Source of the DNA: Vitis vinifera
Lineage: Eukaryota; Streptophyta; Magnoliopsida; Vitales; Vitaceae
DNA: 64,000 bases
Assembly (NCBI RefSeq): GCF_030704535.1
Contig: NC_081810.1
Location: forward strand, 8,876,501 to 8,940,500
Direction of reading: 5' to 3'
Part shown: positions 43,001 through 52,000 of the stretch, piece by piece
Layout: each line of letters opens with the position of its first letter
Position numbering within the stretch: the first letter of the stretch is position 1
Position numbers and translations under genes: made by a program
The notes under the pieces: generated by a model
What the model saw: the letters and a program-made list of their open reading frames with translations, nothing else
The model's database searches: none
Told to the model about the DNA's origin: nothing

Positions 43001-46000
43001 TTCTAATTGAAAGCGACGAGCATCGTTATCCTAATTATAAACTTTCTTCAAGTAAGCCCACATAGAGTGAGCGGAGCAATGGGGCCGTAAGTGGGTGACA
43101 ATATGAGGCTCCACTGAACCAAGAAGCTAAGACATGATGCGTGCATCAAGCACAACCCATGAAGGAGAAGACCCAACATCTTGAGATTTGTCAAAAGTGG
43201 ATGGTTTTGCAACATCCGTGCCATCAATATGGCCCCAAAGGTCTTTTCCCTTGAGAAAAAGTTCAAACTGAAATGCCCAGGTAGAATAATTTGTGCCTGT
43301 AAACTTAACACACACAAGTGCGAAATCCATAAAAAATAAATAGAACTCGAGACAAAAGGGTGGACCACAAAAAAATAAAAATCCCAGAAGAAAACTGACC
43401 CACGACAATCACAGAAATACCGAGAAAAATGGTTGTGGTTGGGTGCAGCACGAATCAACACAGACTTGACCGAAAGACACGAGAGGCTCCTCCGAAACCG
43501 AGAAGACAGAACATAATTTGAGGGAAGAAAAATTAGCAACCTTGCTTTGATACCATGTCAAAATATTGTGTGAATGGCCGAATACCTTGGCCTTGAGTTT
43601 TGTATATTATATATAGACTTTACAAGGATGTTATACATGGAAAGCAAATAAAAGCAAATAAATTCCCGCATGATTCTAGCCCTATACATGTAAACTATAA
43701 TATGTCAAATAATGTATGCTAACTGTACAGAATAATAAATGGAGAAATAAGGAAACAATTATGGGCTAAAATAAGAAAAGAAGTGTGGACAGCAAAACTG
43801 TCTTTTGACATGAATATATCTATTACTATCCAAAAGTCTCAGGAAATCCAAAAATTCTATGTAGATAAGACTATTATCATCATCACTATCCATTCTATCC
43901 ATTGCAGTTGCAAACCATATTATTTGAAAACTATGTTATGATAATGAGTACAAATCAGATGCTCCTTTCAGCTCAAGCTTGTTAATCAGTTGGGTTAGGC
44001 ATATGTATGCTTGGTGGTTTGATACACACAAACATAAGAATGAACTGAAACAATCTGCAGATAATGTCAGGTGTCCCTTTTCTTCTTGCTGCCAGTTCTT
44101 ATGGTTTGAATCAGGTTTAATTTTCCTTCATTAATGGTCATTTCCGTTGTCATTACCATTCATTTATTCATTTATCCTGCTTATTCTCTTTGATTGTCTT
44201 GTACTTAAAATCAACCATGGTTTGGCTATTATGCTTTTAGATGTATCGGGTCCTTTGATTGTGAGTTTTTTCTTTTGATGGTAATCTTGTTACAGTGTCA
44301 AATATGTGTAGATTGATGGACTTCTAGCTTTACTTGTGGAGGAGGCATCCCAGGCTGAAAGATGTGGTCGTCCCTTTCCTTTAACCATCGTTTTTGTTGA
44401 GAGGAAGGTATTTCTGATGTCTGTATACATTTGGTCTACCTGTTTTATACTCTGTAAATTTTAATATGCTGGTTATAACTTTAAGCATCTTGTGTGATAA
44501 TTTCCTTCTGTAGAATCCATCCATACCAACCTTTTTTTCCTTAGTCTAAACACAGGCACCTAGATGCGCCCATTTATTTGTCAACTATACTGGCATTTAA
44601 AAAATTTCTAGATTGATCTACCAGCTTTTCATTGCCAATTCTGAGTGCCCTCTTTTTAATGTTATGGCTTAGTCCAGATTATATCTTCTGAACATCTTTG
44701 CATGAATTTACCATCGAAGTGCAAAATGTTCATAACATAATAAAATTGTTGCAGATGATCAAAGATATGTTGGAACAGCAACACAATGTGACGATCTTAA
44801 CTAACCATCACATGTAGGGTATTGTATTTCTTGAAGTTGAGTTGGAAAATTTAGTGTTTTAAGAAAGTTTGTCATTCTTTACTTAGGAAATGCTGCCTAG
44901 ATGCATGATTTTTTTGCTAGGGGCAGAAAACGTGGTTAATATGGTGCAAGTTTTTTCTTCCTTTGATCTATGTTTGTGTATTTTTTCTTTGGCATGGTTC
45001 GGTTTGATGTCAGTTCTATAGTACTAGATGAAGAGTACAAATGATTTTGTTATCTTATATGTTTGTATGTGTGTATGGTTTTCCTCTAATATATGAGGTC
45101 TTAGCATGGTTCTCTAATAACAAGGCATGGTTTGATGTCAGTGCTATGGTGCTTGATGAAGAGTACAATTTATATATGTATACATATTTTATCTGATTTT
45201 TTTTTTCTTTCATTCATATATAAACTGGCTCTATTTTTATAGTGTTTAAAGGATAACTGTTGGTGTTGTTACTTTACTAAACTTTAGGAGACATTTTTAG
45301 TACTTGAATTTGGGTATGTATACAGACAAGGTGCGATGAAGTCGCGGAAGCTTTGGTAGCTCAAGGTCTGCGTGCAGTTGCTCTTCATGGTGGCCGCAGT
45401 CAAGCTGAAAGAGAGGCTGCCCTTCGTGATTTTAGGAATGGTGCTACTAATATCTTGGTATGCCTGTGTATATCCTCAAATAGTATTGATGATTGCATTT
45501 TTAATGGGCTTGTTCAGCGTGTTGTGACTGATGATGATGCATAGTGTGTAATGAAAATTGTGTCCAACTCCCCCTTTTGGCATGGTGGTCTCACTCACAA
45601 TGGTGGATATCTACTTTTGCATGCTATAAAATGGTGCCACTCAGTTTTCTTGGCATGGTCTATGTTGAGAGAGAGAGAGAGAGAGGAGAAAAACCTTATT
45701 CTCATTCATTGTAATCTCTACTTACAATTGAGAGATATATATATACAAGGCTAGGAGTCCTAACTACCATACATGTGACCTATATTAACAAGGAAAGATA
45801 GTATACTATGCAATACATACATTATATTCAACATTCCCCCTCAAGCTGGAGCATATACGTCATATGCACCAAGCTTGTTACAAATATATTTAATCCTAGG
45901 ACCTCTGAGAGATTTAGTGAAGATGTCTGCTAGTTGATCATTTGAATTGACAAAACTTGTAGCAACACATCCTGATGCGATCTTCTCTCTAATGAAATGA

Positions 46001-49000: not shown

Positions 49001-52000
49001 GCAACAGAGGCAATAGAAGCCTGAGATGTCTGAGATGCGGAGGAGCTCGGAGGCTGAGGCAGCGGAGAATCAGAGGACTGGGCCATATGGGCAGTGCGAG
49101 GAGGTCTTCCATGTAACTGATAGCAACGATCGCGAGTGTGGCCAAGTTTATTGCAATAGGTGCAATGAGGACGTTGGCCTCTACCTCGGGTACCACTGCG
49201 TCCTCCTCGAGAGGTAGTTTGAGAAACTAACACAGAAGAATCTGAAGCGCTATCAGATGGCAAAGTCTGAGTGGACGAGATACGGAGGAGGCGAGCAAAC
49301 ACATCATCCAAGGACGGAACTGATGAACTACCAAGAATCTGATCACGAATAGGCTCAAGATCTGGACGGAGGCCAATAAGAGTAAGGACCATGAAGAACT
49401 TGTCAAGCTGTGTTTGTTGAGCCCCAACATCAGGAGTAAGAGGCATCACAGTCAAGAACTGCTCCTTAAGAGAGGCAATCTGACCAATATAAGTAGATAG
49501 ATCCAAGTCCTGTTGGCTGAGATGGACAATAGCAGAAGCCACCTTATAAAGACGCTGGATATCATTCGTGTATAATCCTTTGGCCTGAGTCCAAAATTTA
49601 AAACAAGTTTTATAGGCCTGAAGATGAAGAAGAATCCGGGGATCAACCGATTGCCATAATACACTACACAACTGTGCATCTATCTTCCTCCACTGTGCGC
49701 GGTCAACCTCAGGGATATCTGCCTCCTGGGTAACCAAGTGATCCTCATATCCTTGACCCATAAACCAAAGTTCAACAGAGGCAGACCAGGAGAGATAATT
49801 CTCACTGCCAACCAATTTCTCTGAGGTAATCAGAGGAGATCCAGCGAGAACAGACGTAAAGATCTGATTTTTGGTGGTCATATTCACGTATTTGGATCGA
49901 AGAGAGCCCTAAGATGGGTTCAGATGGCTGTGAGAGGTGCAATCAATGGAGAAAAAAGGTCGTGACGTGCCTAGAGAGGAAGAGAAGCAGCAACCAAGCC
50001 TCGGGGATGGAGGGGGAGCCCTGTCGGAGGTGGCCGGAATGGCAAGAAAGCCAAAAACAGGGAAAAAATGGAGATGCAGGGCTCGAGGAGGACTGCCGGA
50101 GGGCTAGAAGGCCAAGACGGCGCCGGACGAGCCTGGAGAGGTGTCGGAAGTGGCCGGAAAGTGAGCCACGCGCCGTCACGCGCCGGCGCGTGGGTGACAG
50201 GCCGGAGGAGAAGGGCGGCGCGTGAGATGCCGGTTGCCGGTGGGGTTTCCACTGGCATGTAGATCAGCCTCCGGCGGTTCGGAATATGTGGTCTTTTCCC
50301 GGAAAAAAGGTCGCCGGAAAAGGTTGCCGGCGTGGTGGAGATCCGACGGCGATGAGGTTGTCCGGGGTGGTTCGGAAAGAGAGTGAGGGGACCGGAGTGA
50401 AAACACGGTCACTCGACGGTTCGCCGGAATTGAGTACACGGCTAAACCGAAAAAATTAGGTTTTCTCCTTTGGCTCTGATACCATGTTGAGAGAGAGAGA
50501 GAGAGAGGAGAAAAACCTTATTCTCATTCATTGTAATCTCTACTTACAATTGAGAGATATATATATACAAGGCTAGGAGTCCTAACTACCATACATGTGA
50601 CCTATATTAACAAGGAAAGATAGTATACTATGCAATACATACATTATATTCAACAGTCTAATTTGCCTTATTGTTTTAGTGAGTTTCAGGTCTTTTGGTC
50701 CAGTTCTTTGTTTGTTCTTTCTTTTATTGATCATTAAGTTTAGATTTATCAATTTAGAGAATGGGCTTTATAATGAGGACGACAAATTTATATGAATGCT
50801 GAATTTTGTTTTTCAATATTATTAGCTTTATGCAGAGAATTATGTGAGGCCATTGACCTCATATTCATTTCACACTTCTTTCCCATTCTCTCTGATTTTC
50901 GTCATTTAGTTTGTATTTCTTCTTCTGGATTTCTAACATGATTTCTTACTTGATTTGATTCAGAATCAGGATGGTTCTTGACCCCATACTTATCTGTGTA
51001 GCTTATTTTTAAACCTTTCTATGCAGGTTGCCACTGATGTTGCGTCCCGTGGTCTGGATGTTACAGGAGTCGCCCATGTTATTAATCTCGATCTTCCAAA
51101 GGTATTTATGGCTTCAAGTGAAAGTTTTTGCTTACCGAGTTCACCTAAAACCTACTAACAAGTCTTGGATGTTCCTAAAAGATTTTGGAGTTCTTGCTGG
51201 TCTGACTTGTCATTATAGTAATTCAATGGTGTTGTTATTTGGAAAGAATATTTTGTAGGTAGTAATCTTCTTGAATATGAAGGGCAATATACAATATAAA
51301 ATAAGCTTATGGTTGTTGACTCTTTATGCAACTCATTTGCCTGCTCCTTTCTGTCACTATTAATTTGCTTATAAAAAATAGCAAGCTTAAAGCTTAAGTT
51401 CTGCATGCCTCAATTATAGGCAATGGAAAATTATGTACACCGGATTGGAAGGACGGGGCGTGCAGGATCAACAGGCCAAGCTACTTCTTTTTATACTGAT
51501 CGTGATGTGGTATCTTCTTACTCCACCTTTTCCTTGTACTTTATTTCGGTTTTCCCTTCAGTAGTTCTGTTAATAGATACTGACTCATCTTCTTCAATCA
51601 CATTGTGTAGTTCCTTGTGGCTCATATAAGGAAAGCAATTGCTGATGTTGGATCTGGGAATACTGTGGCATTTGCAACTGGGAAAGTATGGTTTTCCCCT
51701 ATAAGTTGCATTTCAAAATCCATGTGTTTCTTTTGCTTCACATTTACCATGTTTCCCCCCTTTTTCTGCACATTGTTTTTCTATACTTTTAACAGCTTTT
51801 TGTTAACTCATGGGAGGATAAGTTAGGTTAAATTTCTAGATTTTTCTTTGAAAGGGTGTTTCACTTTCAGTGTTTTCCCTTCTTTCCATGACTTTGTAAA
51901 TCTGATATCACTATTGACTTCTAGGTTGCAAGAAAGAAGGAGAGAGAAGCAGCAGCTGCACAGAAAGAAGCTAGGATTGCATTGTCCAATCTCTCATTGA

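What the first reader, a model, noticed from the sequence alone, without database searches (positions are those of the whole stretch)
45663..50655. Very recent, apparently complete copia element inside a helicase intron
Both 171-bp LTRs read as identical, the 5-bp target duplication GTCTA is perfect, primer-binding site and polypurine tract are in place, and the 1348-codon gag-pol has no stop. Together these point to insertion very recently and to a copy that could still be competent. Its site may differ between individuals or cultivars.
Basis: partly seen in the sequence, partly recalled or inferred. Interest (0 to 1): 0.75.

Follow-up and report, generated by a model that had tools for sequence, protein, structure and literature searches.

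The report
Mid-aged intact-looking copia in helicase intron
A complete jumping-gene copy sits backwards in an intron of a plant helicase gene; its matching ends look brand new, but comparison with its sister copies suggests it has been sitting there and decaying for some time, so it is an ordinary member of a young and numerous family.

Summary
In detail: a complete Ty1/copia element (45663-50655, minus strand) with identical 171-bp LTRs, a perfect GTCTA target duplication, PBS, PPT and one stop-free gag-pol frame lies antisense in an intron of a DEAD-box helicase gene. "Inserted very recently, could still be competent" is only partly supported. Identical LTRs are common in this family: 21 of 26 sampled pairs have no substitution. 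The LTR is also a poor clock: short, without CG or CHG sites, it should show only about 0.6 differences in a copy with 12 private coding changes. This copy has 12, with a neutral, mostly C-to-T pattern: replacement to silent 9:3, against 11:46 on branches shared by groups of copies (P = 0.0004). It lies outside the two youngest clusters, whose members have 0-5. Insertion is more likely a few hundred thousand years old; an open frame after that is about even odds. Presence or absence among cultivars could not be tested. By-product: the LTR lacks CG and CHG sites in 54 of 54 LTRs over 150 bp, a trait published for Arabidopsis ONSEN; chance is not excluded.

The parts
50656..50660 (.). target-site duplication GTCTA, copy next to the 5' LTR
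50485..50655 (-). 5' LTR, 171 bp, TGTTGAAT...CTCAACA, no CG or CHG site
50472..50484 (-). primer-binding site TGGTATCAGAGCC
   Evidence: the same letters are called the PBS of the Noble family in PMC2576258
49882..50484 (-). untranslated leader, 603 bp, rich in CG (50 CG, 39 CHG)
45841..49881 (-). gag-pol frame from first ATG to stop, 1346 aa, no internal stop
49123..49164 (-). CCHC zinc knuckle of gag (pattern match)
   Evidence: sub-threshold Retrotran_gag_2 match upstream
48457..48630 (-). GAG-pre-integrase domain
48112..48414 (-). integrase core (rve)
46570..47301 (-). copia reverse transcriptase (RVT_2) with YVDD
45834..45842 (-). polypurine tract GAGGGGGAA, overlapping the stop codon
45663..45833 (-). 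3' LTR, identical to the 5' LTR
45658..45662 (.). target-site duplication GTCTA, copy next to the 3' LTR
45458..51026 (+). host intron, 5569 bp; 571 bp without the element and one target copy
   Evidence: GT...AG; lengths are my arithmetic
45326..45457 (+). helicase exon before the intron (start read by eye), Helicase_C profile 27-69
51027..51101 (+). helicase exon after the intron (end read by eye), Helicase_C profile 70-94

Best explanation
A complete Ty1/copia LTR retrotransposon, one of at least 177 copies of a young family, was inserted by its integrase backwards into an intron of a DEAD-box helicase gene, duplicating GTCTA. It belongs to an earlier, still young wave, not to the newest clusters of the sampled family. 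Since insertion it has decayed neutrally, mainly by C-to-T change, collecting about 12-15 private changes in 4041 coding bases. Its frame happens to be stop-free and its short LTRs, which lack CG and CHG sites, happen to be unchanged. It probably no longer makes a fully working polyprotein. Shown: structure, site, family, tree position, change pattern. Inferred: that the changes came after insertion, the age (about 0.2-0.6 My for rates of 1.3e-8 to 6.5e-9) and the loss of competence.
For: Anatomy. Site and splice junctions; the right flank has 1 match in the genome, itself. Family size: 177 forward and 177 reverse matches to a 45-base integrase-region word with up to 3 mismatches; 40 of 40 scored RT hits, the window's included, at 99-100%. 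Nearest sampled relative 0.62% away, whereas the 13 members of the two young clusters lie 0-0.17% from their nearest; terminal branch 14.8 changes. Private changes 3 silent, 9 replacement, 0 stop, 10 of 12 C>T or G>A. Replacement:silent 9:3 against 11:46 on shared branches (P = 0.0004) and 169:62 on 15 other mid-age terminal branches (P = 1.0). Expected LTR differences 0.61, P(0) = 0.54. P(no stop) 0.50-0.57. In the 1.3-kb piece with 8 of the 12 changes, the best of 39 other scored copies is 49 bits below the window copy; in the gag piece the best is 32 bits below.
Against: LTRs and frame are intact and recognisable catalytic motifs are present. The LTRs carry no private change of their own. 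Private changes of the young clusters are also replacement-rich (19:6), so the ratio shows only that the changes were not selected; residence time rests on their number (12, against 0-5 in the young copies). Only 28 other frames of at least 177 copies were compared, chosen by similarity; the genome searches scored 40 of 608-931 candidates. 8 of 12 private changes fall in one 1.3-kb piece (P = 0.015), which could mean exchange with a diverged copy. Mutation rates are borrowed.
Confidence: 0.8

Rival explanations
1. One reading: inserted within the last few thousand years. The private changes were already in an unsampled source copy, perhaps one absent from this accession or a resident decaying copy moved in trans.
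For: 0 differences in 2 x 171 bp; open frame; no private LTR change. Two of 11 stop sites are each shared by two copies at different places (L009/L010, L012/L020), so movement of stop-bearing copies in trans is possible, though recurrent C>T change explains it too.
Against: Private changes are unselected-looking, not like those on shared branches (P = 0.0004). No scored copy comes near in the piece with most private changes; the nearest in the RT piece has 3 differences.
Confidence: 0.14
2. The LTRs were made identical by gene conversion between them, so their identity says nothing about age.
For: Copies with long terminal branches still have 0 LTR differences: 14 mid-age pairs hold 7 substitutions in all, against about 11 expected after context correction (11.78 for 15 copies; scaling mine).
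Against: The shortfall is small once CG/CHG absence is allowed for. No conversion tract was looked for.
Confidence: 0.05

Closest known systems
Grapevine Ty1/copia families of Moisy et al. 2008 (PMC2576258), Rangen in particular
   Same: TGTT...AACA LTR ends (only Brand and Rangen in that paper), short LTR (all but Brand 147-373 bp), 5-bp target duplication, same PBS letters as Noble, similar leader length to Noble (578-632 bp)
   Different: Rangen's canonical copy has a broken frame and the paper counts 91-212 copies per family; Cremant has a 1,346-aa polyprotein like this one but TAAC...GTCA LTR ends. No letters could be compared here
Grapevine Copia-23 and Copia-3 (PMC9097378)
   Same: Reported as the youngest grapevine LTR families, compact short-branch clusters; 63% and 66% of intact copies lie in introns, as this one does
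   Different: No sequence or LTR length available here, so identity not tested
Arabidopsis ONSEN/COPIA78 (PMC3907296)
   Different: No exact GAAnnTTC or TTCnnGAA heat-element core in this LTR; relationship by sequence not tested

Membership tests
Ty1/copia superfamily | integrase before reverse transcriptase in one frame | tested here: met
   rve, then RVT_2
Ty1/copia superfamily | TG...CA LTRs, PBS, PPT, 5-bp target duplication | tested here: met
Ty1/copia superfamily | RNase H after RT | tested here: inconclusive
   no Pfam match; loose motif hits only, one of them in gag as well
Rangen (grapevine copia family) | LTR begins TGTT and ends AACA, LTR 147-373 bp | tested here: met
Rangen (grapevine copia family) | sequence identity to the deposited element | not testable with these tools
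   Repbase and the paper's supplements are not held
Copia-23 / Copia-3 of grapevine | sequence identity to the named element | not testable with these tools
   only text passages seen
Ale lineage of copia | position in an RT tree with reference lineages | not tested
   no reference elements at hand; size and LTR length suggest it by recall only
[quoted passage not shown]
   54 of 54 LTRs over 150 bp
ONSEN-type promoter | heat-responsive element in the LTR | tested here: not met
   no GAAnnTTC or TTCnnGAA; only this exact core was looked for, in the window LTR
very recent, competent copy | no more private changes than the family's young clusters | tested here: not met
   12 private changes against 0-5 in 13 young copies

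The most novel reading that the evidence does not exclude
The family owes its recent spread, including into introns, to an LTR promoter that offers no CG or CHG site for maintenance methylation, an evasion described for Arabidopsis ONSEN, here without its heat element. The LTR would then escape stable silencing while its CG-rich leader and coding part are methylated and decay. Chance composition is not excluded: 11 of 464 GC-matched 171-bp windows nearby also have no such site.
Probability: 0.25. Interest if true: 0.5.

Novelty: new member of a known kind. Interest (0 to 1): 0.3.

Why it matters
It shows with numbers how identical LTRs plus an open frame can mislead: short LTRs without CG and CHG sites are a slow clock, and comparison with sibling copies grades a copy better. 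The number of private changes, with the replacement-to-silent ratio on private against shared branches, is a general test of whether a copy has been decaying in place. If the CG/CHG-free LTR does shield the promoter, it gives a testable cause for a copia burst in a clonally propagated crop.

Tried and rejected
Considered and set aside: a duplicated locus holding the empty site (right flank has 1 match in the genome, itself; the left flank was not searched). An ONSEN-like heat element (exact core absent). Selection to keep the LTR free of CG/CHG: 28 aligned LTR columns vary and none of 54 LTRs has such a site, but half of those columns lie at positions 118-137, a repeat stretch that I judge badly aligned, and most others are C/T or G/A, which cannot make one, so there is no power. 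RT piece against solved structures gave nothing. A paper naming this insertion: one search, 0 papers. A paper on CG-free LTRs in grapevine: two searches, listings read, and passages of two listed papers; none seen on this point. Horizontal transfer of grapevine copia elements is in print (PMC10586619, passages) but could not be tested for this family. LTR copy count and solo-LTR ratio: not completed. Other accessions and species: no other plant genome was available to search.

Rows dropped: of 31 fetched stretches, L022 and L023 (two halves of one 5'-truncated locus) and L035 (one LTR, partial body) were left out of the frame comparison, leaving 28 plus the window copy. L010, L025 and L034 lacked a scorable pair over 150 bp, leaving 26 pairs; the cruder one search scored these three at 0 substitutions. 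L015 and L017 have a length difference but no substitution; L021 has a longer body and unequal target copies. The sample is biased: 14 loci came from the best LTR hits and 16 of the 40 best RT hits were added; 15 RT hits were never read.

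Full report
What is there. On the minus strand, 45663-50655 holds a complete LTR retrotransposon. The two 171-bp LTRs (45663-45833, 50485-50655) have no difference and are flanked by GTCTA on both sides. The primer-binding site TGGTATCAGAGCC follows the 5' LTR, and the purine tract GAGGGGGAA precedes the 3' LTR. Pfam finds GAG-pre-integrase, integrase core and SH3-like domains, then RVT_2, the copia order. A CCHC knuckle, protease DSGA, an integrase HHCC/DDE pattern and YVDD are present as motif matches. The motif patterns are recalled and loose.

Where it sits. The plus-strand gene is a DEAD-box helicase. Pfam DEAD matches in 32282-32497 and 33983-34276, and Helicase_C is split exactly across the element: profile 27-69 in the exon ending at 45457 and 70-94 in the exon starting at 51027; three other pieces of the gene that I gave matched no family. 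Donor GT and acceptor AG are in place. The intron is 5569 bp, 571 bp without the insertion (my arithmetic). The element lies antisense to the gene. The right flank has one match in the genome, itself.

Which genome. No tool names it. The window is C6:8876501-8940500 of a 495.6-Mb assembly with 21 contigs. Grapevine PN_T2T is 494.87 Mb in 19 chromosomes (PMC10199708, passages), so grapevine is my inference; two organelle contigs would make up the count.

The family. A 45-base integrase-region word gave 177 forward and 177 reverse matches with up to 3 mismatches and none for the reversed control. The first 100 places listed are exact; I read this as at least 177 copies, perhaps 354. All 40 scored RT hits, the window's included, are 99-100% identical, out of 860 first-look candidates. 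I fetched 31 stretches; 28 other copies gave usable frames and 26 copies, the window's included, gave usable LTR pairs. Of these 26 pairs, 21 have no substitution and 19 neither substitution nor gap. Of the 32 stretches scored, window included, 16 have a stop-free frame of at least 1348 codons. The window copy's hallmarks are thus common in this family, in a sample chosen by similarity to it.

How old. Zero of 171 paired sites gives a 95% upper bound of 1.35 My at 6.5e-9 per site per year, the rate used for grapevine copia by Moisy et al. (PMC2576258, section 21), or 0.67 My at 1.3e-8 (rate recalled). The sibling comparison is sharper. The window copy lies 0.62% from its nearest sampled relative over 4041 bases, while the nine members of one young cluster lie 0.05-0.17% and the four of another 0-0.05% from their nearest. 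In the tree its terminal branch carries about 14.8 changes, like eight other copies at 12-20.5. Twelve changes are found in no other sampled copy: 3 silent, 9 replacement, no stop, 10 of them C>T or G>A; the 13 young-cluster copies have 0-5 such changes each.

Decay in place rather than inheritance from a working source. Changes shared by whole groups of copies (eight groups taken from the tree), which arose in replicating lineages, are replacement:silent 11:46. Changes private to 15 other mid-age copies are 169:62 (9 stops counted as replacements), close to the neutral expectation of about 70% replacement, 26% silent and 4-5% stop. The window copy's 9:3 fits the private pattern (P = 1.0) and not the shared one (P = 0.0004). 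The C>T share points the same way (P = 0.012). A limit of this test: private changes of the young clusters are 19:6 as well, so the ratio shows that the changes have not been through selection, and it is their number that speaks for time in place. The best of 39 other scored copies is 49 bits lower in the 1.3-kb piece that holds 8 of the 12 changes, and 32 bits lower in the gag piece, so I see no sibling that shares them, though only 40 of 931 and 608 candidates were scored. Converting 12-14.8 changes gives 0.23-0.28 My at 1.3e-8 or 0.46-0.56 My at 6.5e-9; methylated cytosines mutate faster, so these may be too old. With shared branches so silent-biased, most of the 9 private replacements are probably harmful to function; this is inference. 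P(no stop) after that many changes is 0.50-0.57, so an open frame is little evidence of youth.

Why the LTRs mislead. The LTR has no CG and no CHG site; 55 of its 171 sites are CHH-type C or G and the rest A or T. Using change rates by context from the 15 mid-age copies, a copy with 12 private coding changes is expected to show 0.61 LTR differences, P(0) = 0.54. Across 14 mid-age pairs there are 7 substitutions, and across 11 young pairs none; the context-corrected expectation for 15 mid-age copies is 11.8, the naive one 19.6.

The CG/CHG-free LTR. 54 of 54 LTRs over 150 bp lack both site types; 20000 shuffles of the window LTR average 8.15 such sites and none has zero. The leader right next to it has 50 CG and 39 CHG in 603 bp. 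Against this: 11 of 464 GC-matched windows in the same 64 kb, and 3 of 115 flank windows, also have none, and the LTRs share one ancestor, so this is one event at about the 2-3% level. [quoted passage not shown] Grapevine leaf is reported to have 1.7% CHH methylation against 21.8% in embryogenic callus (PMC8454084, passages), so an LTR with only CHH sites might be little methylated in leaf. No exact heat-element core is present.

What is known. Moisy et al. report 45 of 163 full-length grapevine copies with identical LTRs, and LTRs of TGTT...AACA in Brand and Rangen (PMC2576258: abstract, sections 7, 8, 13 and 21, passages). [quoted passage not shown] The present family is probably one already named, by features only. 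Insertion polymorphism between grapevine accessions and clones is documented (PMC2576258; PMC3299709; PMC10501149; PMC13352677; passages), so variation of this site among cultivars is plausible; it was not tested.

Verdict. It is an ordinary, intact-looking, mid-age member of a young family; the claim of very recent, possibly competent insertion is not borne out by its sampled siblings, though a single accession cannot exclude it.

Noticed in passing
36298-43808: Another intron of the same helicase gene holds an older, broken copia on the minus strand (rve, SH3, gag_pre-integrs at 40713-42074); its LTR-like repeats are 92% and 98% alike in two parts, and one copy appears to be split by a LINE-like element (RVT_1 at 36339-37394)..
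   Followed up: partly
49882-50484: The element's leader is strikingly rich in CG (50 CG in 603 bp) beside an LTR with none; leader length varies between copies..
   Followed up: partly
L009, L010, L012, L020: Two of 11 in-frame stop sites are each shared by two copies at different genomic sites: recurrent C>T change or movement in trans of a broken copy..
   Followed up: no
L033, L034, L036, L038: Four copies, three on contig C14 and one on C12, with 0-2 differences in 4041 bases: a second very young cluster distinct from the larger one..
   Followed up: no
14517-14629: snoR100 H/ACA snoRNA, full-length Rfam match (126.5 bits)..
   Followed up: no
53167-53239: tRNA-Arg (CCT) gene downstream of the helicase gene..
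   Followed up: no
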